Positions 17,146 to 33,918 of a stretch of 64,000 bases of DNA are shown here, one piece after another (positions within the stretch are counted from its first letter, which is position 1; each line of letters opens with the position of its first letter). The translations under genes were made by a program, and so were the position numbers. This stretch comes from Trichlorobacter thiogenes (GTDB taxonomy: Bacteria; Desulfobacterota; Desulfuromonadia; Geobacterales; Pseudopelobacteraceae), in assembly GCF_900167465.1 (NCBI RefSeq), contig NZ_FUWR01000003.1, positions 62,001-126,000 on the forward strand, given 5' to 3'. The notes beneath the pieces were generated by a model that saw only the letters and a list, made by a program, of their open reading frames with translations, did not search any database and had not been told where the DNA came from.

Positions 17146-17177
17146 AGCATTCACCACCTTTCACAAAAGGAGTATTT

Positions 17178-17588: not shown

Positions 17589-17635
17589 AACCCTGCCGGT
17601 GATCTCACGGCCCGTTAATAGGATTGAAGTTAAAT
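17561..17635 (+). repeat. Putative attC site 1
   Basis: R'' ATCTAAC at 17561-17567 fits RYYYAAC and R' GTTAAAT at 17629-17635 fits GTTRRRY; their pairing is 6/7. R'' also pairs perfectly with the cassette start GGTTAGATG at 17033-17041. The centre contains the hairpin CACCGGC / GCCGGTG. L''/L' pairing is weak, so the site is less certain than 18560-18691. Confidence 0.45.
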
Positions 17636-18041: not shown

Positions 18042-18084
18042 ACCTGACCCCAAACCCGTCAGGTCAGTTCCCAAACCGTTAGAA
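18040..18084 (+). repeat. Degenerate junction 2: AGACCTGACCCCA palindrome plus R'-like box
   Basis: GACCTGAC (18041-18048) pairs with GTCAGGTC (18058-18065) across a nine-base loop. AGACCTGACCCCA (18040-18052) is identical to part of the inverted repeat at 30697-30714. GTTAGAA (18078-18084) is the R'-like box that starts cassette 3. No convincing R'' is visible, as if a REP-type sequence replaced part of an attC site. Confidence 0.45.
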
Positions 18085-18130
18085 ACTTATATTTACAGCA
18101 AAATGGAATACTAATAGGAGTGGCAACTCA

Positions 18131-18535
18131 ATGGCAAATGATGATGCTAAAAATTTAGACCTGCTGGCTATGTTCCACTACATATTAGGCGGAATCACCG
18201 CATTGTTTTCATGTTTTCCGTTCATACATGTATTCATGGGTATTGCGGTGCTTACCGGAAAATTTGCCGAAACAACAAGCAAATCATCAGGTCCTCCTGA
18301 AGCAATGTTTGGATGGCTGTTCATTATTATGGGTGGCATGTTTATTTTGGTAGGTTGGAGTATAGCTGTATGCATGATTATCGCAGGCAAAAAGCTAAAA
18401 GCCAGAAAAAGCAAAACGTTTTGCATGGTGGTTGCTGGAATTGAATGTATGTTCATGCCGTTTGGTACAGTGCTTGGAGTATTAACCCTGATTGCCTTAA
18501 ACAAAGATTCCGTTAAAGAGCTTTTCAACGAGTAG
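18131..18535 (+). CDS. Hypothetical membrane protein with FHYILGGITALFSCFP motif
   Basis: 134 aa with about three to four transmembrane helices. The pattern FHYILGGITALFSCFPFIHV...GWLFIIMGGMFILVGWSIAV...PFGTVLGVLTLIALNKDSVK resembles a widespread, unnamed family of small bacterial membrane proteins. Its function is unknown. A TAGGAG site precedes the ATG. It is the single gene of proposed cassette 3, whose attC is the clearest in the cluster. Confidence 0.75.
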   Translation: MANDDAKNLDLLAMFHYILGGITALFSCFPFIHVFMGIAVLTGKFAETTSKSSGPPEAMFGWLFIIMGGMFILVGWSIAVCMIIAGKKLKARKSKTFCMVVAGIECMFMPFGTVLGVLTLIALNKDSVKELFNE

Positions 18536-18559
18536 GCTAAAATTTCAATGTATTGCTGT

Positions 18560-18691
18560 CTCTAACGGTTCAATCAACTCGGACTGGCTTACTGTGAGCT
18601 GAATTTCACCAATGCCTCAACCGTCAGTTGGTCGTTTAGTCAGGCAGCACCACTCCGGCATCGCCAGTCGGTTATCTCATGAACGTTAAGC
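18560..18691 (+). repeat. Putative attC site 3 (best supported)
   Basis: R'' CTCTAAC (18560-18566) is six of seven to RYYYAAC and R' GTTAAGC (18685-18691) is a full match to GTTRRRY. GACTGGC (18582-18588) pairs perfectly with GCCAGTC (18663-18669) as the L''/L' stem. The left arm has extra unpaired bases (AACGGTTCAATCAACTCGG), the asymmetry expected of attC. The total length of 132 bp is close to Vibrio-type repeats. Confidence 0.6.
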
Positions 18692-18708
18692 CATATGGAG
18701 CCCAACAG

Positions 18709-19281
18709 ATGATCAACAAGTTCATTTTGATTAGCGTTAGTTTACTTTTAGGCATCGCGTCTATAGCAGGGACATTTTACGTCAGAGAAAATGTTATCAA
18801 GGCGTACAAGATTCCTTCAAAAAGTATGGAACCGACACTGCTTGTTGGTGATCATATCCTCGTTGACCGGAGCCAGCCAGCGCGTACCCCCAAACGTGGA
18901 GACATCATAGTTTTCAAATATCCTGAATCCCCGTCGAAAGAATTTGTAATGCGTGTTGTTGCGTTAAGCGGTGATACGGTTGAAATTAAAGACAAAACCT
19001 TCTACTTAAATGGCAAAATACTGCCAGAATCTTATGCTGTTCATCAAGAAGAGACTCTATTCCCGCCAGACCAAAACCCAAGAGACAACCTTGCACCCAT
19101 TAAAATTCCAAATGATTCATATTTTGTGTTGGGGGACAATCGAGACAGAAGCTATGACAGCCGTTTTTGGGGCACCGTTTCCAAGGACAAGCTAAGTGGA
19201 ACGGTAAAATCAATCTATTGGTCGTGGGACAGTGCCAATGGAGCAGTACGTTGGGACAGATTTGGCAAGACGGTTCAGTAA
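18709..19281 (+). CDS. Signal peptidase I-like protein lacking the catalytic lysine
   Basis: 190 aa S26 family protein: N-terminal membrane helix, then box B IPSKSMEPTLLVGDHILVD with the nucleophile Ser (residue 39). Box C/D follows with PKRGDIIVFKYP and EFVMRVVALSGDTVEI, and box E with VLGDNRDRSYDSRFWG. In box D the general-base lysine (normally K-R-V/A) is methionine (residue 81, codon ATG). The start at 18709 has GGAG eight bases upstream; an upstream in-frame ATG at 18679 lies inside the attC site. It may be inactive or use altered chemistry. Carriage in a cassette-like unit is unusual. Confidence 0.8.
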   Translation: MINKFILISVSLLLGIASIAGTFYVRENVIKAYKIPSKSMEPTLLVGDHILVDRSQPARTPKRGDIIVFKYPESPSKEFVMRVVALSGDTVEIKDKTFYLNGKILPESYAVHQEETLFPPDQNPRDNLAPIKIPNDSYFVLGDNRDRSYDSRFWGTVSKDKLSGTVKSIYWSWDSANGAVRWDRFGKTVQ

Positions 19282-19289
19282 CCGCCTAA

Positions 19290-19342
19290 TGGCTCAACTA
19301 ACCTGAACAGGCACAGCGCCGGTGCCTCAGCCGGTTAGCCAT
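19290..19342 (+). repeat. Putative attC site 4
   Basis: R'' GCTCAAC (19292-19298) matches RYYYAAC fully and R' GTTAGCC (19334-19340) matches six of seven GTTRRRY positions. The inner stem is AGGCAC (19309-19314) with GTGCCT (19322-19327). The outer arms ATGGCTCAAC and GTTAGCCAT pair with one bulged C. The length of about 53 bp is at the short end for attC. Confidence 0.5.
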
Positions 19343-19400
19343 GACCCAAGTTTATATACAAAAAAGATGCGATATTTCAATTTTGCCGGAGGTTTATACA

Positions 19401-22400
19401 ATGCGTCGTTTTGAATTCAGTGATGACAAATCAAACAAATTTTGGGAGATCGAGCAGGAAGGCGACAACCTGAATATTCGCTGGGGCAAGATCGGCACCA
19501 ATGGCCAGAGCCAGACCAAGGGGTTTGATGATGCTGCCAAAGCGGCAATTGCCATGACCAAACTTGTCAGTGAGAAAACCGGCAAGGGTTACAAAGAGGT
19601 GGGCGTTGCGGCAGATGCAGCAATTGGCGCCTCAGCTGAAAAACCGGTAAAACAAGACGCCAAACAGGCAAAGGTGGTGGTTGCCGTATCTGAAACTATT
19701 CCGGCGGAACAGCCGCTGACTGAAGCAGTGTCGGTTGAAAGCCAGGACGCCCAGGCCGATCGCGCGTTTAACGCCATGATTGAAATCCTTGCAGGGGATT
19801 GCAGCCAGATCAAGGAGTGCCTGACCGCACCGCGTCTGAAGCGTGATTATGGCATCAGTGAACCGGCAGCCAAACAGGTTTTGCAGAGACTTTGCACCGC
19901 CGGTCTGGTCTGGGGATATGGCGGTTCATACAATGTGAACCAGCATGGCCAGTCACTGGCAGCCAGGATTGCCGGTATGAGCAGCGCCAGCCCCGCAACA
20001 GCTGAGGAAAATCAACCCACAACAGCCAATCTGCCGCCCTGGCTGGCCAATGGCACACCGTTGCGCATACTGCCGGAACTGCTCTGCAATACGATTCCAA
20101 CCCGCCGCTTTCCGTGCAAGCCAGTAGAAGGGGATGCGCAGAAAATCTGGTTCAAGCTGCGCAATGACCTGGAGCAAAATGTCACCTTCGACATAAATGG
20201 CAGCTCTGCTGATCTGCAACCGGCTGTGGCGGAAATGGAAGAACGGGTAAAGGGGCGTAAAACCGATGGCAGCCTACAGGCAGATTCGATCCTCTTGGCC
20301 AGCATGAAAGACAACTATCGAGACGAAGATTCAGTCAAATGCAGCGTCATCAATTTTCTGGCAGCAAAAGGCGGGGTGTCATACCTGATTGATGTCTATC
20401 TGGAGGCGCAGCAGATTGCAACGGAAACAGAATACAAAGGGTCGGGCAGGAATTGCCAAAGCGTGAAAACGTTTTCCCGCAATGTCGGCAGTATCAGCAC
20501 GTACAGCTATTATTCTCCCTTGACCATGGGAGATCACCTGATCCGGGCCTATCTCTCATCAGCCCCGGAAGACGTCTACAGGGAATGCCTGGACAAGGCG
20601 TTCAAGGTGCTGCCCGGTTTGCATACCTATCGTCAGGCTTTGGTGGCCCTGTTGTTTCCGAGTGAACCGAAACTGGCTGAGCAGGTCGCACTGGAATATA
20701 ACGGTGCTCCCCCCGTTCCATCGGTAATCCACTGGTTGCTGTTGATTGTCCGTTCCGAAAAGGCTGTTGCCGTTGCCCGCAAGGCGCGCCCGGAAGCCTG
20801 GCTATGGGATGACAACTCCGTGGTGGCCACGCTGTTGCAGGAACGCGGGATTGAGGCGTTGGAGATCCTGATTCCAGGGGCCACCCATGATGCTGCCGGT
20901 CAGGCGCTCTCCTGCATCGGCCTGCCGGAATCCCTGGAAGCGCTGGCCCGGGCCGCAAGCAGCTCCAAACCGGCCCTGGCACGCTTTGCCCAGGCGGTGG
21001 AGCGCTGGCCGCACGCCGCCATGACCGCCATGGCAAAGGTTGTTAGTGGCGGTGGCAAGGATGCCGGGCTGATTACGCCCAATCTCCTCTCTTTGCTGAA
21101 AGCATACCCGGATATGCCGCAACAGCTGGCGCCTTGGCTGGATTCGTCCTCGATCAACGTCATTACCAGGCTTCAGGAACAGATCAGTGGACCAAAAGAG
21201 GTGGCTGATTTCAGTGAACTGCCGGAACTGCTGATCACCCCGCCCTGGCTGAAAAAGCGCAAGGCTGCACTGAAACCACTGGCACTTGAGCTACTCCCGC
21301 TGGCAGCGGTGGAGTACTGGGACGAAGGAGAGAAGGAACTTGCTCAGCGCGAAGACAACAAATGGGTACAGCAAAGGATTGAAGAGTGTCGGGATGATCT
21401 GGGCAAGATCCTGAAAGAAATCGGCTTGAAAGATCATAACAAATCAATGGTTTCAGTCATGAAAGCGGCCAAGGATAATGACGGCAAGGCGCTGGCAAAG
21501 ATCTGGATCGACAATCACAATGAAAACAAGGCAACACATCGCTATTACTACAGCAGCCTGAATGGGCTGTTTGTAACTTTGCTCCCCAGAAAACTGGCGA
21601 TTGAATTCTGGAACAGCATCATTCCGGAGGCTCTAAAAATGGGAATCAGTGTATATTCCAGCGACTATGTCAATGCGAGCTATGGCCTGGAGACGCTATC
21701 TAGCCTGAAGGCGCTGGCCACCAGTCGGCCGACGGAATATCTGGCCGAGGCACTGCATTTCGGTGACACAAGTTTTGCCGCCACCGCTGCCAGGGCCTTT
21801 GCCAAGCTAAAATCCATGCGCTCCATTGGGCGAGAATGGCTGCTCCGTTTCCCGGAACATGCAATCTGCGGGCTACTGGCGGCATCTGTCGGCAAGGCAT
21901 GCGAAACACGCGACTGTGCCGCATCATCACTACGTTTGCTGGCCGCCAACGGCCATGCAGGCCTGATCATGGAGAAGGCCGGACTGTACAATCAGCCAGA
22001 GGTGTCGGTTGCCGTGGCCGCCATGCTTGATGAAAACCCACTGGATCGTTTCCCATCCAAGATCCCGACTATGCCGCAGTTCTGGCAGGCGGAAAGCTGG
22101 AGCAGACCAAGGCTGAAAAACGGCAAGGCGCTGCCGGACAGCGCCCTGCAATATCTGGGCAACATGCTGACCTTTCCCACCACGGAAGAGCTCTATCCCG
22201 GCATCAATATTGTCAAAGAGGCCTGTGATGCCCAATCCCTGGCAGACTTCGGCTGGGACTGCTTTGGTTCCTGGCTGAATGCCGGTGCACCGGCCAAGGA
22301 AGGGTGGGCGCTGACCATGCTGGGGTATTTGGGAACGGATGATACAGCCCGCAAGCTGACCCCCTATCTGCGGGCCTGGCCGGGTGAATCGGCCCATGCA

Positions 22401-23537
22401 CGTGCTGTAACAGGGTTGGATGTGCTGGCCAATATCGGCAGCGATGTGGCCCTGATGCTGTTGCATGGCATTGCCCAGAAGCTCAAGTTCAAAGGACTTC
22501 AGGACAAGGCCCGTGAAAAGATCGATGCTATTGCCGAAGCACGCGGCCTCACCAGTGAAGAGCTGGAGGACCGCCTGGCCCCGGACCTGGGGCTGGATGA
22601 ATCCGGTTCTCTTGTCCTCGATTTCGGTCCACGTCAGTTCAAGGTCGGTTTTGATGAGGCGCTCAAGCCGTATGTACGCGAATTTGCAGATGGGCGCGAC
22701 GGTGGACGGCTGGCCGATCTCCCCAAACCGAAAAAAACCGATGATGACGCACTCTCCAAGGAGGCTGTTGAACGGTTCAAGCTGCTCAAAAAGGATGCCC
22801 GCACCATTGCCGGCCAGCAGGTTGTCAGGCTGGAAACAGCCATGTGCAGCAGGCGGCGCTGGTCAGAAACGGTCTTCAGGCAGTTCCTGGCCGGGCACCC
22901 GCTGGTACGCCACCTGGTCCAGCGCCTGATCTGGGGTGTTTACCAGTGCGAACCGGAGAGCAGCTATGGCGGCAAACTGCTGACCTGCTTCCGGGTCAGC
23001 GAGGATGGCAGCTATACCAACAGCGATGACGACGCCATAACACTGCCGGAAGGAGACAATCTGCTGATCGGCCTGCCCCACGCCCTGGAGCTGCCGCAGG
23101 AAGATGCGGCCGCCTTCGGGCAGCTGTTTGCTGACTATGAGCTGCTGCAGCCCTTTGCCCAGATCGGCCGCGACACATACACGATCAGCGAGACGGAACT
23201 GAGCGGAGAGAAACTGGAACGCTGGAAAGGAACGGTCGTCCCCACCGGGCGCGTGCTTGGTCTGGTTAACAAGGGGTGGCGCAGGGGACATGCTCAGGAT
23301 GGCGGCAGCATCTGGTATTTCAACAAGCCGCTGACCGGCGACAAGGTTATCGAACTACTGCTTAATCCGGGCATCATCGTCGGCATGGTCGATGAATATC
23401 CAGAGCAGACATTACAGGAGATCCAGGTCGGGATTCCGTCTTCATGGGGCGAACTGCAAAAACCGGAAAAACTCGATTTGCTCGACCCAATCTCGGCCAG
23501 TGAACTGATCCGCGATATGGAAGCACTGCGGGGATAG
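19401..23537 (+). CDS. WGR and DUF4132 (MolR-like) domain protein
   Basis: 1378 aa. Residues about 1-75 form a WGR domain (FWEIEQEGDNLNIRWGKIGT), a fold that binds DNA ends or nucleic acid in PARPs. A winged-helix-like stretch (about 130-190) and a long HEAT-like helical middle follow. The C-terminus is DUF4132 with WRRGHAQDGGSIWYFNKPL. E. coli MolR/YehF and YehI are relatives; their function is unsettled. The ATG at 19401 has GGAGG eight bases upstream; an earlier in-frame ATG at 19341 overlaps attC 4. It heads the MoxR-vWA-SWIM operon and probably serves as its large scaffold or target-recognition subunit (inference). Confidence 0.85.
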   Translation: MRRFEFSDDKSNKFWEIEQEGDNLNIRWGKIGTNGQSQTKGFDDAAKAAIAMTKLVSEKTGKGYKEVGVAADAAIGASAEKPVKQDAKQAKVVVAVSETIPAEQPLTEAVSVESQDAQADRAFNAMIEILAGDCSQIKECLTAPRLKRDYGISEPAAKQVLQRLCTAGLVWGYGGSYNVNQHGQSLAARIAGMSSASPATAEENQPTTANLPPWLANGTPLRILPELLCNTIPTRRFPCKPVEGDAQKIWFKLRNDLEQNVTFDINGSSADLQPAVAEMEERVKGRKTDGSLQADSILLASMKDNYRDEDSVKCSVINFLAAKGGVSYLIDVYLEAQQIATETEYKGSGRNCQSVKTFSRNVGSISTYSYYSPLTMGDHLIRAYLSSAPEDVYRECLDKAFKVLPGLHTYRQALVALLFPSEPKLAEQVALEYNGAPPVPSVIHWLLLIVRSEKAVAVARKARPEAWLWDDNSVVATLLQERGIEALEILIPGATHDAAGQALSCIGLPESLEALARAASSSKPALARFAQAVERWPHAAMTAMAKVVSGGGKDAGLITPNLLSLLKAYPDMPQQLAPWLDSSSINVITRLQEQISGPKEVADFSELPELLITPPWLKKRKAALKPLALELLPLAAVEYWDEGEKELAQREDNKWVQQRIEECRDDLGKILKEIGLKDHNKSMVSVMKAAKDNDGKALAKIWIDNHNENKATHRYYYSSLNGLFVTLLPRKLAIEFWNSIIPEALKMGISVYSSDYVNASYGLETLSSLKALATSRPTEYLAEALHFGDTSFAATAARAFAKLKSMRSIGREWLLRFPEHAICGLLAASVGKACETRDCAASSLRLLAANGHAGLIMEKAGLYNQPEVSVAVAAMLDENPLDRFPSKIPTMPQFWQAESWSRPRLKNGKALPDSALQYLGNMLTFPTTEELYPGINIVKEACDAQSLADFGWDCFGSWLNAGAPAKEGWALTMLGYLGTDDTARKLTPYLRAWPGESAHARAVTGLDVLANIGSDVALMLLHGIAQKLKFKGLQDKAREKIDAIAEARGLTSEELEDRLAPDLGLDESGSLVLDFGPRQFKVGFDEALKPYVREFADGRDGGRLADLPKPKKTDDDALSKEAVERFKLLKKDARTIAGQQVVRLETAMCSRRRWSETVFRQFLAGHPLVRHLVQRLIWGVYQCEPESSYGGKLLTCFRVSEDGSYTNSDDDAITLPEGDNLLIGLPHALELPQEDAAAFGQLFADYELLQPFAQIGRDTYTISETELSGEKLERWKGTVVPTGRVLGLVNKGWRRGHAQDGGSIWYFNKPLTGDKVIELLLNPGIIVGMVDEYPEQTLQEIQVGIPSSWGELQKPEKLDLLDPISASELIRDMEALRG

Positions 23538-23714
23538 ATTTTCTAAGTCCGACAGACTCCTGGACCGACGCATTAATCCTCGGCCATGAGCTAACTTATT
23601 CTGGTTGCATTTGGCTTACGTTTTTGCAGTCACCATGTTATTTGCCAAGCCCTGTTCAGGTTTGCTGCTGACCTATTTAAAATCAGCACCCAAACGGGTC
23701 GAAGTAAGCATCAC

Positions 23715-23781
23715 CTGCTTCGCCCGCATTACCGGAATCACCCGGAAAGGCAGGCGAAGCACGATAAAGTCGTGCTTCGCC
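23715..23781 (+). promoter_or_regulatory. Competing hairpins in the leader before the MoxR gene
   Basis: GCTTCGCC occurs at 23717-23724 and 23774-23781, with the complement GGCGAAGC at 23753-23760 between them. The downstream pairing is a 12-bp perfect stem (23753-23764 with 23770-23781, loop TAAAG) and the upstream pairing is a weaker alternative. They are mutually exclusive. No T-run follows, so this is not a simple terminator. It may adjust expression of the downstream four genes or be a mobile palindrome. Confidence 0.4.
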
Positions 23782-23823
23782 CTTACGCCCATCTCAACCA
23801 GACATACATTTCAAGAGGTAAAA

Positions 23824-24945
23824 ATGGCCAGAACAACTTATACGCCAGCAGCAGAAAATGATGACTTTCAGCGGCCGCCGGCCGAGATCATGTATGGCGA
23901 GGAACTGGAACGGCTGCGTAAGGCGGACCGGGAGGCGACGCCTCCGGGGTGGCAGATCAGCCTCAAGTCGGCCAGAAGCTTCATTATGGGGGATGCGGCG
24001 GCCGGAATTACTCAGAAGATCGTAGCACCGGTTTCCAGTATTGAGCGGATGCTGGTGACGCTGGCCACCGGGCGCGGACTGATGCTGGTTGGCGAGCCAG
24101 GCACGGCCAAATCCATGCTGTCGGAGCTGCTGTCGGCGGCCGTTTCCGGCACATCCACTCTGACCATTCAGGGGGGCGCCTCCATCACCGAGGACCAGAT
24201 CAAGTATGGCTGGAACTACGCACTGCTGATCAATGAAGGGCCCACGCCGCGCGCGTTGGTGCCTGCCCCGCTCTATCAGGGGATGCGGGACGGCAAGGTG
24301 GTCCGCTTTGAAGAGATCACCCGCTGCCCGCTGGAGGTACAGGACTGCCTGCTGGGGATGCTCTCCGACCGTGTCATGTCGGTACCGGAGCTGCCGGGCA
24401 ATGACAACATGCTCTATGCCCGGGAGGGGTTCAATATCATCGCTACCGCCAATACCCGCGACCGCGGCGTAAATGAGATGAGCGCCGCCCTCAAGCGTCG
24501 TTTTGATTTTGAAACCGTCTTCCCGATCTTTAATTACGCACAGGAGCTGGAGCTGGTCTCCGAGCGTTCCGCCAGACTGCTCAAGCAGAGTGGCATCCCC
24601 CATACCCTGCCGGATCACGTGGTGGAGGTGCTGGTAACCACCTTCCGCGATCTGCGCGGAGCCGGTAATGGCGAGCGGGATGGCGACAAGGGCAGTGACC
24701 GGCTGAATGCGGTCATGTCCACGGCCGAAGCGGTTAATGTGGCCCATGCCGTTGGTGTGCGGGCCTGGTTTCTGGAACAGCGCGCTGCTGACCCGGCGGA
24801 TGTTGTCGACTGCATCAGCGGCACGGTCATCAAGGATAATAATGATGACCGGGCCAAATTACGGCGCTATTTTGAGCAGAAGGTGGCCAAAAAGGCTGGC
24901 AAGCAGTGGAAGGCTTTTTTTGAGGCACGTCACCGGCTGCCATGA
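23824..24945 (+). CDS. MoxR-type AAA+ ATPase (YehL-like)
   Basis: 373 aa. Walker A is GEPGTAKS (residues 90-97), the Walker B-like segment is VVRFEEI and sensor 1 is IIATANTRD. ALKRRFDFE has the MoxR-type arginine finger region, and a helical lid follows. MoxR ATPases remodel or load vWA-domain partners. Here the vWA protein is two genes downstream, as in E. coli yehL-yehM-yehP. The start at 23824 follows an AAGAGG site; the frame is open upstream through a hairpin region. The stop overlaps the next start by four bases. Confidence 0.9.
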   Translation: MARTTYTPAAENDDFQRPPAEIMYGEELERLRKADREATPPGWQISLKSARSFIMGDAAAGITQKIVAPVSSIERMLVTLATGRGLMLVGEPGTAKSMLSELLSAAVSGTSTLTIQGGASITEDQIKYGWNYALLINEGPTPRALVPAPLYQGMRDGKVVRFEEITRCPLEVQDCLLGMLSDRVMSVPELPGNDNMLYAREGFNIIATANTRDRGVNEMSAALKRRFDFETVFPIFNYAQELELVSERSARLLKQSGIPHTLPDHVVEVLVTTFRDLRGAGNGERDGDKGSDRLNAVMSTAEAVNVAHAVGVRAWFLEQRAADPADVVDCISGTVIKDNNDDRAKLRRYFEQKVAKKAGKQWKAFFEARHRLP

Positions 24946-27332
24946 AACCGCATATCCTCGGAGTAAGACATCACAGCCCGGCCTGCGCCCAGCGGGTTGT
25001 CTGGCGCATCAATCAGCTGCAGCCTGCCTTTGTGCTGATTGAAGGACCAGCTGATTTCAATGACAAGCTTGATCAGCTTTATCTGCAGCACCAGCTGCCG
25101 ATTGCCGTCTACAGCTACCTCTCCAGCAGCAAGCAGCATCACGGTTCCTGGTCCCCATTTGCGGAGCATTCGCCCGAATGGCAGGCGCTTGTCCATGGCC
25201 GCCGTGTTGGAGCCGTGGTGCGCTTCATTGATCTGCCCGCCTGGCATGACGCCTTTGAATCACTGGAAAACCGTTACGCCGATGCCGTTGATGCCGAGGC
25301 CGAAGAGTCGCTGCGCAGTTATGACGCGGCCCTGGAGAAGCGGCTGGCAGTTGAGGGGCATGATGCCCTGTGGGACCACCTGTTCGAAGACCTGTTCAGC
25401 AGTGCCGATGACCAGCTGGGGATGGAGCTGCTGGACAGCGCACTTGACACCTATTTTAATAATCTGCGCTCCACGGCTGCCGGTTCACTGGGCAATCAGG
25501 CCAGGGAAAAGACCATGGCCAGCTGGATCGCCTGGGCAATAGCCCAGAAGCGTGGCGAGGTGGTGGTGGTCTGTGGCGGCTACCATGCCGCAGCACTGGA
25601 GCGCCTCTGGCCGCAGATGCCGACAGGGCTGCCGGATACGCCACTGCCGGAAGTAGACAATGTGGGTGGTGAGCTACGCTACGGTTCTTTTCTGGTCCCC
25701 TACACCTTCAAACGTCTGGATTCCTTTACCGGATACGCCTCGGGCATGCCATCGCCTGCCTATTACCAATGGCTCTGGGAGGGGGGAGCGGAGCATGCCG
25801 GGCATGAGCTGTTGCGGCAGATCATTGAACGACTCCGCAGCCGCAAGCTGACCGCCTCAACGGCCGATATGATTTTTCTGCACTCACGGGCCAGCGGCTT
25901 GTCCCGTCTGCGCGGTCATCGCCAGATACTGCGCATTGACTGGCTGGATGCTATTGCCGGAGCGCTGGTAAAGGATGCCCTTTCCGTTGCGCTCCCCTGG
26001 AGTTATCGCGGCCGGCTGCAGCCCGGTACTGATCCGGTACTGGTGGAGTCCATGGATGTGATCGCCGGCAATCTTATCGGCAAACTGGCCCCGGAGACCC
26101 CGCAACCGCCACTTGTTCATTCCGTGGCGGCAGAGCTGGAAAAAGCCGCCATTCCCCACATCGGCACCCTCAAACTTGATCTATTCAGCGATGCCGGGCG
26201 CGCAAAGAGCAGGCTGCTGCACAAGCTGTCGATTCTGGCCATCCCTGGTTTTACACGCAGCAAAGGGCCAGCAGAAGCCATGGACGGTGAGTCCACAGAA
26301 ATCTGGCAGATCACTCAGCCGATCACCCGGGCCGCCGCCCTGATCGAGGCGGGGGCCTGGGGGGCAACGGTGGAAACCGCCGCCACCGCCTGCCTGGAAT
26401 CACTATTGCGGGAAGCGGAAAACGATATCGGCAAACTGGCCTCCATTCTCAACAGGGCCGCTTTTGCAGGTCTCAGGCAGATCAGCTCCGGCTGTATTGC
26501 CCAGCTTGCTAACGCAGTGACGGCAACGACACGCTTTGAACCATTGGGTGGGGCGTTGTCCACACTATACAACCTGTTCTGCCATGGCCGGATGCTGGAG
26601 ATGGATGGCGCCCCAATGCTGGCTGCGGTGGTAGAAGCAGCATTTGACCGGGCCTTGTGGCTGTTCGAACTCCCCGGTGCCATAGCTGTGGCTGAACAGG
26701 AAGCGCATATCCATGCCGTCAAGGGGATTAGTCAGATCTGTCTGGATCTGTGGGGCGAGCGGAATGCCGATCCTGACAGTACGTTTCTCTCCGGCATACT
26801 GCCGGAGCGGGCCAAGGCCGTATTCAAGCGCAAGTCAACCGCCTGCAATTCTGCCCCGGTCAGTCGTGGTGCCTCGGTTGGCGTACTGTTGGCCCTATCA
26901 GTTCAGGATGAAGCGGAACAGGAGCTGCTGGCAGAACAGGCGCTGGAACTGGTCCTCTCACTTCAGCCGCAGGAGATGGGGGACGGCCTGGCCGGCATGA
27001 TTGCTTTAGGTCGCGAGCAGTTGGCCCACAACCATCATTTCTTGACCGGCCTCAATCAGGCTGTAACAGAGCTTGATGACCACGATTTTGTAGTGGCCCT
27101 GCCGGCCATGCGCGGCGCCTTTACCTGGCTACCGCCACAGGAAAGAGGCGCACTGGCGGAGGCGGTCCTGCTGCTACACAATGCCAGCCACCTTTCGGCC
27201 CGGCAGCTGACAGCCCCGCTGCTGGAAAACGACCCCATTGCACAGGCCAACGCCGGACTGGCAGAAAAAGAGGTCATCCGCCTGCTGGCGGCATGGGGAA
27301 TTGTGGTTGACGACAACCGGGGTACGGCATGA
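24942..27332 (+). CDS. DUF5682 family protein (YehM-like)
   Basis: 796 aa. The N-terminal motif HILGVRHHSPACAQRVVWRI followed by FVLIEGPADF is diagnostic of DUF5682. WAIAQKRGEVVVVCGGYHAAAL and a long helical remainder follow. The biochemical activity is unknown. The conserved HH and EGP motifs suggest an active site related to ChaN/TraB-like folds (inference). It overlaps both neighbours by four bases, so it is made together with the ATPase and vWA protein and probably works in one complex with them. Confidence 0.85.
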   Translation: MKPHILGVRHHSPACAQRVVWRINQLQPAFVLIEGPADFNDKLDQLYLQHQLPIAVYSYLSSSKQHHGSWSPFAEHSPEWQALVHGRRVGAVVRFIDLPAWHDAFESLENRYADAVDAEAEESLRSYDAALEKRLAVEGHDALWDHLFEDLFSSADDQLGMELLDSALDTYFNNLRSTAAGSLGNQAREKTMASWIAWAIAQKRGEVVVVCGGYHAAALERLWPQMPTGLPDTPLPEVDNVGGELRYGSFLVPYTFKRLDSFTGYASGMPSPAYYQWLWEGGAEHAGHELLRQIIERLRSRKLTASTADMIFLHSRASGLSRLRGHRQILRIDWLDAIAGALVKDALSVALPWSYRGRLQPGTDPVLVESMDVIAGNLIGKLAPETPQPPLVHSVAAELEKAAIPHIGTLKLDLFSDAGRAKSRLLHKLSILAIPGFTRSKGPAEAMDGESTEIWQITQPITRAAALIEAGAWGATVETAATACLESLLREAENDIGKLASILNRAAFAGLRQISSGCIAQLANAVTATTRFEPLGGALSTLYNLFCHGRMLEMDGAPMLAAVVEAAFDRALWLFELPGAIAVAEQEAHIHAVKGISQICLDLWGERNADPDSTFLSGILPERAKAVFKRKSTACNSAPVSRGASVGVLLALSVQDEAEQELLAEQALELVLSLQPQEMGDGLAGMIALGREQLAHNHHFLTGLNQAVTELDDHDFVVALPAMRGAFTWLPPQERGALAEAVLLLHNASHLSARQLTAPLLENDPIAQANAGLAEKEVIRLLAAWGIVVDDNRGTA

Positions 27333-28465
27333 ATCTACAGATTAGCGAACCATTACAGAGGTGGCGACTGCTGCTGGGAGAGTCCGCCGAAGCGGCCCTT
27401 TCCGGGCACGGCGGCGGACTGGATGCGGCTGCAGCCGGTGCCGATGCGGCCCTGGAGTGGCTTTACGGCAGAGATCCTGGCCGGGCTGAGCGTGGAGAAC
27501 GCAAGGCCGGACTGGACGGATCACAGTTGACCACCCCGGACTGGATCAACTCCCTTCACAAACTGTTTCCCAAAGAGGTGATCGAACGGCTGGAACAGGA
27601 TGCCGTTGAGCGATTCGGCATTGACGAGGTGGTCACCAACCTGGAGGTGCTTGAACGGCTGGAGCCCTCGGAATCACTATTGCGAGCGGTGCTACACACC
27701 AAGCATCTGATGAATCCGGATGTACTCTTCGCCGCCCGCCGCCTGGTGGCCGAGGTTGTGCGCCGGATTATGGAAAAGCTGCAGAGCGAGGTAAAGCAGG
27801 CATTCAACGGCACCCGTGATCGCCGTCGCCGGTCTAATATGCGGATAGCCCGCAATTTCGATTTCAAGAGAACACTGTCGGAAAACCTGCACCGCTGGCA
27901 TCCGGAAAAGAAAAACCTTTATCTGGAAAAACCGGTTTTTATCAGCCGTACCCGCTGCCAGGTGGAGCGTTGGGACATCATCCTGCTGATCGACCAGAGC
28001 GGTTCCATGGTTGATTCAGTTATCCATAGCGCAGTCATGGCGGCCTGCCTCTGGAATCTGCCCGGCATGAATACCAGGCTGGTAGCCTTTGATACGTCCA
28101 TTGTTGATCTGACCGCAGATGTGACTGATCCGGTGGAACTGCTGATGAAGGTGCAGTTGGGGGGCGGAACCAATATTGCCAAGGCGGTGGCCTATGCCCA
28201 GCAGCTCGTCTCCAACCCGTCAAAAAGCATTGTTGTGCTGGTATCGGATTTCTACGAAGGGGGAAGCAGCACAGAACTGGTGCGACGGGTCAAGACCATG
28301 GTGGAGAACGGTGTGAAGTTTCTAGGACTGGCGGCGCTGGATGAATCGGCCACACCGGTTTATGACCGGGAGATGGCCTCCCGTCTGGTCAATGTTGGTG
28401 CAATGGTCGGCGCCATGACACCGGGGCAGCTGGCAGCTTGGCTGGCGGAAAAGGTGCGGGGATGA
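27329..28465 (+). CDS. vWA domain protein partner of MoxR (YehP-like)
   Basis: 378 aa. A helical N-terminal part (about 1-205) includes an Arg-rich stretch TRDRRRRSNMRIARNF. A von Willebrand A domain begins at about 215 with the MIDAS motif DQSGS (D222, S224, S226). The threonine (LGGGTNIAKAVAYA) and aspartate (VVLVSDFYEGG) that complete metal binding are also present. Such proteins are clients or adaptors of MoxR ATPases. Its length equals that recalled for E. coli YehP. The start and stop both overlap neighbouring genes as ATGA. Confidence 0.9.
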   Translation: MNLQISEPLQRWRLLLGESAEAALSGHGGGLDAAAAGADAALEWLYGRDPGRAERGERKAGLDGSQLTTPDWINSLHKLFPKEVIERLEQDAVERFGIDEVVTNLEVLERLEPSESLLRAVLHTKHLMNPDVLFAARRLVAEVVRRIMEKLQSEVKQAFNGTRDRRRRSNMRIARNFDFKRTLSENLHRWHPEKKNLYLEKPVFISRTRCQVERWDIILLIDQSGSMVDSVIHSAVMAACLWNLPGMNTRLVAFDTSIVDLTADVTDPVELLMKVQLGGGTNIAKAVAYAQQLVSNPSKSIVVLVSDFYEGGSSTELVRRVKTMVENGVKFLGLAALDESATPVYDREMASRLVNVGAMVGAMTPGQLAAWLAEKVRG

Positions 28466-30561
28466 GATACGGACGCACGGATCTGCTGGAGTTGTCAACT
28501 GAGGCACTGATCGCACTCTCCAACGTCGGCTTTGTCAAAAAGGGGATCAAGGATCTGGAGGCCGGTCTGCTGCCCCGTCTGGAAGAGGATCAGGACGGAA
28601 ACCTGCATGGCTATTACGATGACAGCAGCCACGTCACTCTTCCGCCGGGGAGGACATTGCGCGAGGCCCAATGCAGCTGCCCGGCCAGTGGCATCTGCCG
28701 CCACCGCGTCACCCTGATACTGGCCTATCAGGCCGCTGCCGCAGCAAGGGAGAATAGCGCTGAAAATAATAGCGATCAACCCGCCGAGGCCGAAGAACCC
28801 GGCTGGAATCCGGGCCGGTTTGACGATGGCATGCTGCTGGAGGTGTTGACCAAATCACGTCTGCAGCAGGCGCAGAAACTGGCGGCAGCAGGGATGGTGG
28901 CAACGGTCCAGGGGGGGCATGACGTTCCGACGGTCCGCTTTGCCATGTGCACGGTCCGTTTTTTCTCGCGATCATCGCTGGCTCACGCCCGCTGCGACTG
29001 CAAGGAAGGCAGCGGCTGCTGCCATGTGGCCCTGGCTGTCTGGGCCTTTCGTCAGGCGGCACAGGAACATCCGGATCAGGCAGAGGCGGTGATTGAACTT
29101 AGGCTGCCTGAAGGAGTTGACGGTGCAGACCGGGCAGACCGGGCAGGCCGTGCCGGATTGCTGGCAGGGGATGGGGCGGCCGCGACGCTGATGGACGAGA
29201 TTGAAAACTGGCTGAACAGGATCTGGAGCGGCGGTGCCGCCCAGCCGCTTTCTGCAACCGAGGCGCAGGTCCGGCTAATCCTGGCACAGTGTGACCAGTT
29301 GGGATGGCGCTGGGTCGGGGAAGGGGTCAGGGAAATCCGGGATATGATCATCTGGCTTCATGGCCGTTCCAGCAGGTTTGACCAACAACGTCTGCTCCGC
29401 TCCGTTGCCGCTCTCCCTGCCAGACTGCAGGCCGCCGGCTTCATGGAGGCGTCATCGTCGCCACGGCTGCCGGCCCGGCAGATTCTGGGGATCGGTGAAA
29501 AGGGTGAGATGGCGCTCGACCATCTGAACCTGACCTCTCTTGGCCTGGAAATCTGGGGCGATGACACCGGTCAGGGGGCTGATCTGGTCTTCATGGATCA
29601 TGACACCCAGACCCTGATGCTGCTGGAGCGTTACTGGCCGCAGCAGGAGGGGCAGACAAAACCGCTCTCTTGGCAGGATCTGATGGGCAAGCGGGTCTCG
29701 GGCAAGCCACTGCGTCAGATGGCCAACGGCCAGATCATTACCAAAACCGCCACCAGACGAGCCAACGGCAGTGTGGATATCAGCAGCACCAACCGCCTGA
29801 CCAACGTTTTCCCGCTCTCGCCCAAGTCTTGGGACAACATCAAAGAGCCGGTGCGCCAGCATGGCCCTTGCGCCCTTGCCCGACACTTGCAACAACAGCT
29901 GCCGGCGTTTGTACGGCCGGTGCAGAATCTGGGGCATTTCCATGTCGTCAGCCTTGAGGCCGCGCAAGTGGCTGATTACGGCTGGGATGCAGCTCTACAG
30001 AAGCTCCACGCCGTTATTATTTCCGGCAGTGCGGAGGATGCTCCGCTGCAGCTGTCACTCCCCAACAACCCGCTGGCTCCCCATGCCATTGATGCCGCCC
30101 TGCAGATTTTGTCCGGCGAACTGGGGCCGATCGCTGACGTTGCCGGTATGGCCTGGCTTGAAAACGGTCAGCCATTTCTGCATCCGCTGGCAATCCTGAC
30201 CAGGGATCGGTCCGTGGTGCTGCAGGCAGCAGATGCTCCCACCACCACCGCACCCCATGGCAGGCAGCTGGGCGACAGCACCCCGCTTGGCGATGCCGTC
30301 CACTCTGCTCGTGAAATACTGGCCCATTGGCTCAGACGCGGGGTCAAACAGATGGGAAAAGGCGAGTATGACAAGGCGCTTGAACTGGAAAAGGTACTCG
30401 CCGGCTGCGGCCTGCGAAGCACAGCCGCAGCCTTTGCCGGTCTGCACAAAACCCTTACTGCGGCGGATTTTCAGCAGCTCTCCCGCCAGCTCTCTACAAT
30501 CATTCTGCTGCTGGATCAAGTCACGCAAAAAGGGATAGGAGAGATAGGGATAAGAATTTAA
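28462..30561 (+). CDS. SWIM zinc-finger protein (YehQ-like)
   Basis: 699 aa. A first SWIM zinc finger (CxC...CxH) is at Cys71, Cys73, Cys79 and His81 (CSCPASGICRH). A second SWIM-like set is at Cys178, Cys180, Cys186 and His188 (CDCKEGSGCCH). SWIM fingers bind DNA or proteins. The rest is helical with no recognised domain. The ATG at 28462 is chosen because it overlaps the vWA stop; an in-frame start 24 bases upstream is less likely. It is the last gene of the five-gene operon. Confidence 0.88.
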   Translation: MRYGRTDLLELSTEALIALSNVGFVKKGIKDLEAGLLPRLEEDQDGNLHGYYDDSSHVTLPPGRTLREAQCSCPASGICRHRVTLILAYQAAAAARENSAENNSDQPAEAEEPGWNPGRFDDGMLLEVLTKSRLQQAQKLAAAGMVATVQGGHDVPTVRFAMCTVRFFSRSSLAHARCDCKEGSGCCHVALAVWAFRQAAQEHPDQAEAVIELRLPEGVDGADRADRAGRAGLLAGDGAAATLMDEIENWLNRIWSGGAAQPLSATEAQVRLILAQCDQLGWRWVGEGVREIRDMIIWLHGRSSRFDQQRLLRSVAALPARLQAAGFMEASSSPRLPARQILGIGEKGEMALDHLNLTSLGLEIWGDDTGQGADLVFMDHDTQTLMLLERYWPQQEGQTKPLSWQDLMGKRVSGKPLRQMANGQIITKTATRRANGSVDISSTNRLTNVFPLSPKSWDNIKEPVRQHGPCALARHLQQQLPAFVRPVQNLGHFHVVSLEAAQVADYGWDAALQKLHAVIISGSAEDAPLQLSLPNNPLAPHAIDAALQILSGELGPIADVAGMAWLENGQPFLHPLAILTRDRSVVLQAADAPTTTAPHGRQLGDSTPLGDAVHSAREILAHWLRRGVKQMGKGEYDKALELEKVLAGCGLRSTAAAFAGLHKTLTAADFQQLSRQLSTIILLLDQVTQKGIGEIGIRI

Positions 30562-30663
30562 AAGAAGACCTGATTAGCGTCAATCTTCCGCTTTACCCTT
30601 CTCTCTTGGTGGAAAAGGTGCAAACAATATTAGTCTGTTTCCCCCTCACCCGAGTCACACCTT

Positions 30664-30714
30664 TGGGGTCAGGTCTTGAAATACAAGAAACTGATTTTTC
30701 AAGACCTGACCCCA
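30664..30714. repeat. 18-bp perfect inverted repeat, GGGGTCAGGTCTTG type
   Basis: TGGGGTCAGGTCTTGAAA at 30664-30681 is the exact complement of 30697-30714, with a 15-base loop. It lies 100 bases after the SWIM gene. AGACCTGACCCCA recurs at 18040-18052. It resembles REP/BIME palindromes moved by IS200-like REP transposases, and it could also act as a terminator although no T-run follows. Confidence 0.75.
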
Positions 30715-30746
30715 GAGTTATCGCCCGTTGAACAAAAACTAAAATG

Positions 30747-30779
30747 ATGACAAAAGGCACACAGTTAAGTATGATATCA
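30747..30779 (+). promoter_or_regulatory. Promoter and possible operator of the toxin-antitoxin pair
   Basis: ATGACA (30747-30752), a 17-base spacer and TATGAT (30770-30775) form a sigma-70-type promoter. The -10 box ends six bases before the ATG at 30782, so transcription would begin at or next to the start codon. TGATATCA (30772-30779) is a palindrome overlapping the -10 box, a plausible site for the ribbon-helix-helix antitoxin. Confidence 0.5.
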
Positions 30780-30781
30780 CT

Positions 30782-31066
30782 ATGAAACCAATCAACTGGA
30801 ACTCTGACAAAAACTTAGCGCTCAAAGCCGAGAGAGGGATTTCCTTCGAGGAAGTACTGGTAGCTGTTTCGCAGGGAGCGCTCCTTGATGTGGTCGAACA
30901 CCCAAATAAGGAGAAGTATCCAAACCAACGTATTTTTATCGTCCGAATTCGCGGCTACGCCTTCTTGGTTCCTTTTGTTGAAACGGATGAAGAAATCTTT
31001 CTGAAGACAATCATTCCGAGTCGAATCGCCACCAAGAGGTACATTGCAAAGGGAGAAGAACGATGA
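30782..31066 (+). CDS. BrnT-like toxin
   Basis: 94 aa. The pattern INWNSDKNLALKAERGISFEEV...RIFIVRIRGYAFLVPFVE...IFLKTIIPSRIATKRY matches the BrnT/RelE-superfamily layout, probably a ribosome-dependent or free ribonuclease. No Shine-Dalgarno is visible and the promoter suggests a leaderless mRNA. The stop overlaps the next start by four bases. Toxin-first order is typical of brnTA. The exact family is moderately certain. Confidence 0.75.
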   Translation: MKPINWNSDKNLALKAERGISFEEVLVAVSQGALLDVVEHPNKEKYPNQRIFIVRIRGYAFLVPFVETDEEIFLKTIIPSRIATKRYIAKGEER

Positions 31067-31401
31067 GTAGAAAATTAAAAGCTGAAGAGAAAGAATACGA
31101 AGAGGAGATCCTGGAATCATATGAGAGCGGAGAATGGAAGTCAGTGTCTAATCTTGACAAAGAGATTGCCCGCTATGCTTTAAGTGCTGCAGCTACCCTC
31201 ACTAAAGATAAACGAATAAACATTCGGCTTTCTTCTCGGGACCTCGAAGATATCCAAATGAAGGCTGCAGAGGAAGGTATGCCCTACCAGACTCTGATTG
31301 CCAGTATCGTTCATAAATATGCCAGCGGCCGGCTTATTGAGACCGTATCACGTCCACCTACATGCTCGACCGGTCGCACGAAAAAGCTGCGCGCCGGTTA
31401 G
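31063..31401 (+). CDS. BrnA/CopG-like ribbon-helix-helix antitoxin
   Basis: 112 aa. An acidic N-terminal region (KAEEKEYEEEILESYESGEW) likely wraps the toxin. INIRLSSRDLEDIQMKAAEEGMPYQTLIASIVHKYASGRL is a ribbon-helix-helix DNA-binding domain. The last about 20 residues (TVSRPPTCSTGRTKKLRAG) are atypical and may reflect extension toward the neighbouring repeat. It is expected to neutralise the toxin and autorepress the promoter at 30747-30779. Confidence 0.78.
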   Translation: MSRKLKAEEKEYEEEILESYESGEWKSVSNLDKEIARYALSAAATLTKDKRINIRLSSRDLEDIQMKAAEEGMPYQTLIASIVHKYASGRLIETVSRPPTCSTGRTKKLRAG

Positions 31402-31427
31402 CTCTCCTCCGCCAGGAAAAGCTGTTG

Positions 31428-31557
31428 CACGCGGAGCCGCCGAGACGCGAAGAGTAAAATCATATACTTACTGCATTTTATTGTTTCACCTGTAGGATCG
31501 ATCCTTGGTTTCAGGTAACTACTTAGATTTTCTCCGCGAGCTTCGCGGCACCGCGTG
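31428..31557. repeat. Dispersed inverted repeat, CACGCGGAG/CCGCGTG family
   Basis: The left arm 31428-31454 (CACGCGGAGCCGCCGAGACG...) is complementary with gaps to 31532-31557 (CTCCGCGAGCTTCGCGGCAC...). Inner segments TTTCACCTGTAGGAT and ATCCTTGGTTTCAGGT can also pair. Flanking AGTAACTGCCGTTTT (31558-31572) also appears, inverted, near 13215-13230. It fills the gap between the antitoxin and the hydrolase. Confidence 0.8.
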
Positions 31558-31652
31558 AGTAACTGCCGTTTTAAGAATAATTGATCATCCAACAACAGGT
31601 CCGCGCAGATGACCGCACCACCGCTACAAAGCACCAAGCCAGGAGTCCCCCT

Positions 31653-32495
31653 ATGATTGCAAAAAATGCGTTTATAAACGGCAGCATGATCGCCTATGAC
31701 GATGTCGGGACAGGGCCGGCTGTTCTGTTGATCCACGGATTTCCCCTGAACCGCAGCATGTGGCGCCCGCAACTGGGAGATCTGGTGGCAGCCGGGTATC
31801 GGGTCATAACGCCGGATCTGCGGGGATTTGGCGAAAGTGATGCGCCTGATGGGACCTACAGCTTGGATCTGTTCGGTGATGACCTGATCAGCCTGCTGGA
31901 TCATCTGGAAATTGAGCAGGCACTGGTGGCCGGGATGTCCATGGGCGGCTATGTGCTATTTAACCTGCTGGCCCGCTTTCCTGAACGGATCAGCGGCGCT
32001 GTCTTTGTGGTGACCCGCAGCGTTGCTGATGATGAGGCAGGCCGCGCACGACGCTTACAGCTTGCAACGGATCTGCTTAAATTTGGCCCGCAGGTGGTTG
32101 CCGACAGCTTCCATCCCCTGATGTTTGCAGATGGTACAGTGGAGGCACGCCCCAAGCTTGCTGAAGAGGTCTATGGCTGGATGGTGGGTAATGCAAGCCG
32201 GGGGCTGGCAGGCGGGCTGCTTGCCATGCGTGATCGCCCGGATGTGACTCAGTTACTCCCATCAATCACCAAACCTTCACTGGTGATAGCTGCTGAACAG
32301 GACAAGGCCTGCCCGATTGAGCATCCCCGCATGATCGCCAACGGGATCAGCGACAGTCAGCTTGAAGTCATTGCCGATGCTGGCCATCTGGTTAACCTTG
32401 AGCAGCCAAACGGGTTTAATCACTGCCTGCTGGAGTTCCTGCGGCAGGTTGCTCCCACAGCGCTCAATGACGGCACTATCGGATGCCATTGCTAA
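31653..32495 (+). CDS. Alpha/beta hydrolase
   Basis: 280 aa. Oxyanion motif HGFPLN, nucleophile elbow GMSMGG with Ser, a catalytic Asp after [11 protein letters not shown], and His in [11 protein letters not shown]. This is the complete alpha/beta hydrolase fold triad, close to 3-oxoadipate enol-lactonase/esterase-type proteins. The substrate cannot be assigned. The ATG at 31653 has AGGAG eight bases upstream; the frame is open further upstream. The adenine deaminase gene follows after 19 bases. Confidence 0.88.
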
Positions 32496-32514
32496 CCGAA
32501 AAGGGGACATCACC

Positions 32515-33558: not shown

Positions 33559-33640
33559 ACCACACAGCTACACCGCACGAGCACACGGATGACGCGGATT
33601 GAGCGGATCTACGCAGATGAGAACCTCATCAAAACTTTAG

Positions 33641-33875: not shown

Positions 33876-33918
33876 AAACAACCATTTCCAGGGTACATCC
33901 AATTATAAGAGGTCTTCC

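What the first reader, a model, noticed from the sequence alone, without database searches (positions are those of the whole stretch)
19401..30561. Five-gene WGR/DUF4132 - MoxR - DUF5682 - vWA - SWIM operon
Five large genes lie in one direction; the last four overlap each other by ATGA, which implies fixed stoichiometry and a complex. The set combines a nucleic-acid-end-binding type domain (WGR), an AAA+ ATPase with intact Walker A, an uncharacterised DUF5682 protein with HH and EGP motifs, a vWA protein with complete MIDAS (DQSGS), and a protein with two SWIM zinc fingers. The same order is recalled for E. coli yehI-yehL-yehM-yehP-yehQ, whose function is unknown. MoxR-vWA pairs with extra modules have been proposed as conflict or defence systems. 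Its position next to a cassette cluster and a toxin-antitoxin pair fits an accessory defence or stress role, but that is inference.
Basis: partly seen in the sequence, partly recalled or inferred. Interest (0 to 1): 0.85.

Follow-up and report, generated by a model that had tools for sequence, protein, structure and literature searches.

The report
Bacterial MoxR-vWA machine with TIKI-fold enzyme
Five genes of unknown function that E. coli also carries (yehI, yehL, yehM, yehP, yehQ) encode an ATP-driven protein-remodelling pair together with a protein whose front domain is predicted to have the fold of the TIKI enzymes, so a mystery operon of a model bacterium becomes testable by changing a few named amino acids.

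Summary
Five same-strand genes (19401-30561) encode WGR+DUF4132, MoxR-type AAA+, DUF5682, CoxE-type vWA and two-SWIM proteins; the last three junctions are ATGA overlaps. All five occur together in 37 of 43 related GTDB loci, 33 in the window's order, matching E. coli K-12 yehI-yehL-yehM-yehP-yehQ.

New here: the N-terminal domain of DUF5682 is predicted to have the TIKI-superfamily fold (TraB, ChaN, HopBA1, RRSP, erythromycin esterases): the 12 best-ranked structural matches are all TIKI members, and H10, E34 and H215 line up with TraB. A distant TIKI-like family also sits beside its own AAA+ gene (5 of 5 loci).

Best reading: a MoxR/vWA remodelling motor coupled to a TIKI-type hydrolase, with the WGR and SWIM proteins as targeting parts. 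Fold and gene linkage rest on prediction and comparison; catalysis, substrate and complex are inferred.

The defence reading is not supported: no PADLOC system matches and yehM is near-core in E. coli (5284 of 5426 genomes). In this host the operon is a recent gain: a sister genome has 755 bp where the window has 12.3 kb.

The parts
19401..23537 (+). gene 1: WGR + long helical middle + DUF4132 (YehI/MolR type), 1378 aa from the ATG at 19401 (open frame from 19341)
   Evidence: Pfam; GGAGG upstream of 19401; only DUF4132 gene in this genome
23824..24945 (+). gene 2: MoxR-type AAA+ ATPase (YehL type), 373 aa from the ATG at 23824 (open frame from 23605)
   Evidence: AAA_5 1.3e-33; motifs
24942..27332 (+). 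gene 3: DUF5682 (YehM type), 796 aa
   Evidence: PF18934 1.3e-101; 23 of 23 and 40 of 40 aligned relatives keep H10, E34, R188, E189, H215
24942..25628 (+). TIKI-superfamily domain of gene 3 (residues 1-229), GVRH at 7-10, E34, GGYH at 212-215
   Evidence: AlphaFold2 model and structural matches; TraB profile match
27329..28465 (+). gene 4: CoxE-type vWA protein (YehP type), 378 aa, MIDAS-like D222/S224/S226, T281, D307
   Evidence: PF05762 1e-61
28462..30561 (+). gene 5: protein with two SWIM zinc-finger motifs (YehQ type), 699 aa from the ATG at 28462 (open frame from 28438)
   Evidence: PF04434 1.9e-5; motifs at residues 71 and 178
19289..31611 (.). stretch without a BLASTN match in the sister genome G011, where 755 bp lie instead: the gained DNA that holds the operon

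Best explanation
The five genes are a yeh-type module. Gene 2 (MoxR AAA+) and gene 4 (CoxE-type vWA) form an ATP-driven remodelling motor of the kind shown for NorQ/NorD: a ring that pulls or twists on the vWA partner while the vWA MIDAS metal grips an acidic patch of the client. Gene 3 (DUF5682) is the enzyme or immediate client of that motor: its first ~229 residues are a TIKI-superfamily domain with the two GX2H motifs and the central glutamate, followed by a helical-repeat scaffold. Gene 1 (WGR, DUF4132) and gene 5 (two SWIM fingers) bring the machine to its target, probably a nucleic-acid-bound protein or a nucleic-acid end. Shown: the domains, conserved linkage, predicted TIKI fold, conserved residues, recent gain in this host. 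Inferred: that the TIKI site cuts a peptide or ester bond, that the motor acts on gene 3 or feeds it, that genes 1 and 5 target it, and the substrate.
For: Fold: the model of residues 1-282 (pLDDT 81.9, pTM 0.85) has as its 12 best matches only TIKI members: TraB family chains 8b6h_DQ, 7w5z_E and 8bqs_DQ (named TraB), ChaN 2g5g, HopBA1 5t09, RRSP 6a7h and 6a8j (codes in PMC6254334), Ere-family 2qgm, 6xcq, 3b55, 6xcs and 2rad; five of them have Z 8.0-8.8. The full-length model gives 8b6h_DQ first with Z 10.4. Sequence: TraB proteins of other genomes hit the DUF5682 profile at 2.8e-5, 9.4e-4 and 3.7e-4 (identified), and profile comparison aligns H10/E34/H215 with the TraB H/E/H. Conservation: H10, E34, R188, E189 and H215 in 23 of 23 and 40 of 40 relatives and, over types I, II and TIKI-like, E34, R188, E189, H215 in 10 of 10 and H10 in 9 of 9 covered, the tenth having RHH in its full frame. 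Linkage: 37 of 43 loci keep all five; in the DUF5691 variant the MoxR-DUF5682-vWA trio stays; in 5 of 5 genomes with a distant TIKI-like protein the gene directly upstream is an AAA+ ATPase. MoxR-vWA mechanism: PMC13036017 (abstract) and PMC9976466 (passages).
Against: Single-method fold evidence is modest: Foldseek alone gives one match under 1e-3 (7w5z_E 9.2e-4, TM 0.36) for the domain and none for the full model; by the tool's own note Z under 8 can be a common arrangement, and row 12 (5.6) and the first unrelated row (FtsY 4.7) differ by less than 1. Profile comparison is weak (P 0.0023 and 0.011, probability 12 and 4). The 2His/2Glu motif of RRSP is incomplete: the position of its Glu-3900, two before the first His, is V8 here (sequence; motif). 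TIKI members can be inactive: PMT lacks the motif. The distant AAA+/TIKI-like pairs show no vWA related to gene 4. L029 keeps only genes 2 and 3. Nothing shows that the five proteins meet.
Confidence: 0.45

Rival explanations
1. Cofactor or metal-insertion chaperone: MoxR and vWA act as CoxD/CoxE and NorQ/NorD do and load a metal into a client, possibly the metal-binding TIKI domain itself or a molybdenum enzyme; WGR-DUF4132 (MolR type) and SWIM proteins are regulators or adaptors.
For: vWA is CoxE-type at 1e-61; CoxD is needed for a Cu-Mo cluster and MoxR proteins mature protein complexes (PMC3893208 passages); NorQD drives metal insertion (PMC13036017 abstract); molR was named for molybdate use (cited in PMC8533742 and PMC4245954); metal is structural in some Ere enzymes (PMC6254334 passage).
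Against: No metalloenzyme gene recurs beside the operon in the flanks clustered (coarse: high-GC shadow frames spoil part of it). In D. radiodurans moeA and moeB did not change when WGR and DUF4132 genes rose (PMC8533742).
Confidence: 0.22
2. Anti-phage or conflict system in which the TIKI domain is the effector, released by the MoxR/vWA switch when the WGR or SWIM part senses foreign nucleic acid.
For: MoxR-vWA pairs form the core of several proposed conflict systems that are said to stem from CoxD-CoxE (PMC7159879 passages). In this host the operon is newly gained at a variable spot and absent from 37 relatives; DUF5682 occurs on 32 plasmid records; one copy lies beside a type I restriction system. 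HopBA1, a TIKI relative, is an effector by its entry title.
Against: No PADLOC match; bpMoxR below cut-off; the paper on MoxR-vWA conflict systems holds no WGR, DUF4132 or SWIM; yehM in 5284 of 5426 E. coli genomes, 5166 of them over at least 80% of its length, which is unlike most defence genes (recalled); no viral contigs match.
Confidence: 0.15
3. DNA-damage response module: WGR and SWIM proteins find broken or blocked DNA and the motor clears proteins from it.
For: D. radiodurans WGR protein DR2173 and DUF4132 operon drA0165-drA0166 rise strongly when the DNA-damage repressor DdrO is depleted, and that paper says MolR was described as LexA-regulated (PMC8533742 passage). WGR is known from PARP1 (recalled).
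Against: No exact CTGT-N8-ACAG site in the window or in K-12 2188000-2216000, and none upstream of the operon in the related loci (3 stray sites elsewhere: L005, L022, L033); best 20-base match in the window has 6 mismatches. LexA consensus recalled.
Confidence: 0.1
4. The TIKI domain is a dead fold used as a binding platform, and the module is a plain MoxR/vWA chaperone.
For: Incomplete 2His/2Glu motif (V8 at the Glu-3900 position); PMT shows that TIKI members can lack activity.
Against: H10, E34 and H215 never vary in 40 aligned relatives, more than a scaffold should need; the RRSP residues whose loss abolishes activity, Glu-3930 and His-4030, correspond to E34 and H215 by motif order (inference).
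Confidence: 0.08

Closest known systems
E. coli K-12 yehI-yehL-yehM-yehP-yehQ (with yehF and pseudogene yehH)
   Same: Same five families in the same order and strand; Escherichia DUF5682 is about 42% identical
   Different: K-12 has WGR and DUF4132 spread over yehF, yehH and yehI and a small yehK between; here one fused WGR-DUF4132 gene and a 286-bp gap
NorQ/NorD and CoxD/CoxE, MoxR AAA+ with vWA partner
   Same: AAA+ of MoxR type next to a CoxE-type vWA with a complete MIDAS motif
   Different: No known metalloenzyme client here; instead a TIKI-type protein between the two genes
TIKI superfamily (TraB/PrgY, Tiki, ChaN, Ere, RRSP, HopBA1)
   Same: Predicted fold of DUF5682 residues 1-229, GX2H...E...GX2H pattern
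   Different: Fused to a ~500-residue helical scaffold and tied by operon to a MoxR-vWA pair; lacks one Glu of the RRSP 2His/2Glu motif
MoxR-vWA ternary conflict systems (PMC7159879, passages)
   Same: MoxR plus vWA with extra modules
   Different: bpMoxR model below cut-off; no WGR, DUF4132 or SWIM named there; near-core in E. coli
DUF5691 variant (Rhizobium sophoriradicis plasmid L067; genome G162, L060)
   Same: MoxR-DUF5682-vWA core kept; SWIM gene present in L067
   Different: DUF5691 stands where DUF4132 stands here; DUF5682 only about 24-26% identical

Membership tests
yeh operon (YehI/L/M/P/Q type) | WGR/DUF4132, MoxR, DUF5682, vWA and SWIM genes adjacent on one strand | tested here: met
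MoxR AAA+ ATPase | AAA_5 domain with Walker A, Walker B, sensor 1 and arginine finger | tested here: met
   and motif search (motif names recalled)
CoxE-type vWA partner | PF05762 over its cut-off and MIDAS DxSxS-T-D | tested here: met
   (208.6 bits, cut-off 26.4); MIDAS definition in PMC9976466
TIKI superfamily | TIKI alpha/beta core | tested here: met
   prediction only: 12 of 12 best rows are TIKI, full-length model 8b6h_DQ Z 10.4; Foldseek alone weak
TIKI superfamily | two GX2H motifs with a glutamate between (TraB/Tiki subtype; pattern partly recalled) | tested here: met
   G7-H10, E34, G212-H215 in 40 of 40 relatives; the first G is P in 3 of 9 covered distant members
TIKI superfamily | complete 2His/2Glu motif as in RRSP | tested here: inconclusive
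   three positions fit; the position of Glu-3900 holds V8, and whether E189 replaces it needs coordinates that were not at hand
TIKI superfamily | hydrolase activity | not testable with these tools
   needs purified protein
MoxR-vWA-beta-propeller conflict systems | bpMoxR model PF20030 over its cut-off | tested here: not met
   17.9 bits, cut-off 27
known or candidate anti-phage systems of PADLOC-DB 2.0.0 | match of the five proteins to a PADLOC model | tested here: not met
   no family for genes 2-5, WGR_XIII at 0.021 for gene 1 (local WGR region)
metal-insertion MoxR-vWA chaperones | a dedicated metalloenzyme client encoded nearby | tested here: inconclusive
   none seen among clustered flanking genes, but that clustering was coarse

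The most novel reading that the evidence does not exclude
The module is an energy-dependent hydrolase of a kind not yet described: a MoxR ring and its vWA adaptor deliver or open substrates for a TIKI-type active site in DUF5682, while WGR-DUF4132 (or DUF5691 in the other variant) and SWIM proteins choose the substrate, perhaps proteins stuck on nucleic acid. It would be the first AAA+ machine built on the TIKI fold, present in nearly every E. coli.
Probability: 0.22. Interest if true: 0.85.

Novelty: new variant of a known kind. Interest (0 to 1): 0.62.

Why it matters
yehI and yehL-yehQ are unexplained genes of the best-studied bacterium and yehM is nearly core to the species. A predicted enzyme fold with named residues, and a second, DUF5691-bearing form of the same module, turn 'five conserved unknowns' into a set of point-mutant tests. 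If the motor does feed a TIKI site, it adds a new fold to ATP-dependent hydrolase machines.

Tried and rejected
Defence membership: PADLOC scans of the five proteins and of ten others gave no system; one neighbour (17178-17588) hits PD-Lambda-6 at 0.0025, taken as weak. LexA boxes: no exact CTGT-N8-ACAG near the operon. Viral carriage: no match in viral contigs; the single 'phage' hit (MT835988) carries MgsA and DUF5717 genes and looks bacterial. Solved structures by sequence: no useful relative for DUF5682, vWA or SWIM proteins; gene 1 WGR matches 2ra8 and gene 2 matches midasin. Structure search with the full-length DUF5682 model was swamped by helical-repeat proteins, so the first 282 residues were modelled alone. 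A single TraB query against the PDB found nothing; another found the Tetrahymena TraB chains. Recurrent sixth gene: none convincing, whose frame picking is poor in high-GC loci, so presence counts come from tblastn. TIKI families absent from the list are not excluded by it. Papers: searches for DUF5682, DUF5691, yeh names, MoxR with vWA/WGR/SWIM/DUF4132, MoxR/YehL/RavA, TIKI names and molR showed no description of this module or of a TIKI domain in DUF5682 among the rows listed; the library is partial and several lists were capped, so this is not proof that none is in print. The Pfam clan of DUF5682 was not looked up.

Rows left out: alignment A1 took the window and 22 of 43 loci; A5 the window and 39 of 43 (without L025, L033, L039, L044: broken, cut or partial frames); A4 ten chosen sequences, with L060 cut after its first motif.
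Full report
What is there. Five open frames lie on the + strand. Likely starts put gene 1 at 19401-23537, gene 2 at 23824-24945, gene 3 at 24942-27332, gene 4 at 27329-28465 and gene 5 at 28462-30561. Junctions 2/3, 3/4 and 4/5 are ATGA overlaps; genes 1 and 2 are 286 bp apart. Pfam finds WGR and DUF4132, AAA_5, DUF5682, VWA_CoxE and SWIM.

Conservation. A scan of GTDB contigs with gene 3 gave 43 loci, mostly Burkholderiales at 50-56% identity and Enterobacterales at 41-44%. All five genes occur in 37 of 43, on one strand; 33 have the window's order and four Burkholderia loci have gene 1 last. Of the six others, four are cut by contig ends, L014 is partly cut and L029 truly keeps only genes 2 and 3. 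E. coli K-12 has the same order as yehI-yehL-yehM-yehP-yehQ. A megablast search with an Escherichia yehM finds a match in 5284 of 5426 complete E. coli genomes, in 5166 over at least 80% of the query; 5289 of the 5291 places are on chromosomes. In Rhizobiaceae plasmids the order is MoxR-DUF5682-DUF4132-vWA-SWIM.

A second form. In Rhizobium sophoriradicis the annotation reads SWIM - DUF5691 - AAA - DUF5682 - VWA. Genome G162, of the host's own class, has DUF5691 (4.2e-61) before MoxR (39%), DUF5682 (24%) and vWA (33% identity); whether it has a SWIM gene was not settled. The constant trio is therefore MoxR, DUF5682 and vWA, while DUF4132 and DUF5691 alternate.

Recent gain in this host. DUF5682 is absent from 37 relatives searched with the host, 14 of them congeners, and above cut-off in 2 of 277 genomes of the class, the host included. 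In the sister genome G011, BLASTN matches cover window 18684-19288 (a signal peptidase gene) and 31612-36798 and leave 755 bp between them, against 12,323 bp in the window. A second congener, G005, has about 4.6 kb of other DNA at that place. So the operon arrived by horizontal transfer at a variable spot; the mechanism was not resolved.

DUF5682 starts with a TIKI-type domain. Four lines point the same way. (1) Structure: an AlphaFold2 model of residues 1-282 from 40 sequences (pLDDT 81.9, pTM 0.85) was compared with the PDB. In VIA-align the first 12 rows are all TIKI members: TraB-family chains 8b6h_DQ, 7w5z_E, 8bqs_DQ (Z 8.8, 8.7, 8.6; 182-185 residues; about 4.8 A), ChaN 2g5g (8.8), HopBA1 5t09 (8.0), RRSP 6a7h and 6a8j (6.6, 5.7) and five Ere-family entries (5.6-6.1); the first other row is FtsY at 4.7. 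The chains' identity as TraB comes, ChaN, HopBA1 and Bcr135 as TIKI from PMC6254334 (passages), the RRSP codes from the same paper; placing the remaining Ere entries in TIKI rests on their titles. The full-length model also has 8b6h_DQ first (Z 10.4, residues 1-229). Limits: Foldseek gives one match below 1e-3, Z gaps under 1 count as ties, and Z below 8 may be a common arrangement by the tool's note. (2) Profile cross-hits: TraB proteins of G040, G077 and G480 hit the DUF5682 profile at 2.8e-5, 9.4e-4 and 3.7e-4 (proteins), and the N-terminal domain hits ChaN PF04187 at 0.054, not significant alone. (3) Profile-profile comparison with three TraB proteins aligns GVRHHS with GTAHIS, IEGP with VELD and CGGYH with IGAAH (P 0.0023, probability 12%); with five TraB-type proteins only the first motif aligns (P 0.011). 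(4) Residues: H10, E34, R188, E189 and H215 are unchanged in 23 of 23 (A1) and 40 of 40 (A5) sequences; in ten sequences spanning the distant forms E34, R188, E189 and H215 stay in 10 of 10 and H10 in the 9 covered. The glutamate at the RRSP Glu-3900 position is missing (V8), so an active site is likely but not proven.

AAA+ and TIKI travel together more widely. Five genomes of the host's phylum have only a distant TIKI-like protein (N-terminal DUF5682 match). In all five the gene directly upstream, same strand, is an AAA+ ATPase of one family (62-92% identical to that of L061; Pfam AAA_5 1.6e-17 for L061). No vWA related to gene 4 was found there.

How it most likely works. MoxR ATPases with vWA partners remodel a client: in NorQ/NorD a finger of the vWA domain enters the ring pore, and the MIDAS site, needed for function but not for ring binding, is thought to hold the client (PMC9976466 passages; PMC13036017 abstract). 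Genes 2 and 4 have the matching parts. I propose that they act on or with gene 3, whose TIKI domain is the catalytic part and whose C-terminal helices are the scaffold, and that WGR-DUF4132 and SWIM proteins bring the machine to nucleic-acid-associated targets. The domain content is shown; the coupling, the chemistry and the target are inference. Confidence 0.45 for the whole statement; I would put the TIKI fold alone near 0.9.

Rivals. A metal-insertion chaperone (0.22) fits the CoxE-type vWA and the old molR molybdate story, but no client gene was seen. Defence (0.15) fits horizontal gain and plasmid copies, but no PADLOC family matches, bpMoxR is below cut-off, and E. coli keeps yehM almost everywhere. 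A DNA-damage role (0.1) draws on Deinococcus, where WGR and DUF4132 genes rise on DdrO depletion (PMC8533742 passage), but no LexA-type box lies by the operon. A dead TIKI platform is given 0.08.

Novelty. The gene set is known as annotation in E. coli; I found no description of it as a system, nor of a TIKI domain in DUF5682, in the searches listed under Tried and rejected. I rate it a new variant of a known kind, a MoxR-vWA system with a TIKI-type partner.

Noticed in passing
window 17010-31612: Variable spot between obg/rdgC-like genes and an alpha/beta hydrolase gene: congeners G011 and G005 keep the signal peptidase gene but carry other genes around it.
   Followed up: partly
window 19289-19341: Hairpin-like, attC-like stretch right after the signal peptidase gene at the edge of the gained DNA; the genome holds an integron integrase on another contig (C13, 3.0e-143). 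Not tested as an attC site.
   Followed up: partly
window 30661-30717: Inverted repeat with 21-nt arms, 95% complementary, just after the operon; may be a terminator or a REP-type element.
   Followed up: no
window 31063-31401: CopG-type antitoxin (PF12441 1.9e-6) downstream of the operon; the neighbouring frame 30815-31120 on the other strand has no Pfam match.
   Followed up: no
L061, L062, L063, L064, L065: Separate two-gene set: AAA+ ATPase followed by a ~610-720-aa TIKI-like protein, in five genomes of the phylum, gene pair conserved down to about 40% identity.
   Followed up: partly
L029 and L014: Two betaproteobacterial contigs keep only MoxR and DUF5682 of the five genes; L029 has full 10-kb flanks.
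   Followed up: no
L070 (MT835988): Record labelled bacteriophage holds MoxR, DUF5682, CoxE-type vWA, MgsA and DUF5717 genes and looks like a bacterial contig.
   Followed up: partly
L044: Contig filed under Mycobacterium talmoniae carries a piece of the operon 60% identical to the window's DUF5682, possibly a contaminating contig or a transfer.
   Followed up: no
L033:10001-12262: DUF5682 gene of Escherichia sp. MOD1-EC7003 has one in-frame stop at codon 508.
   Followed up: no
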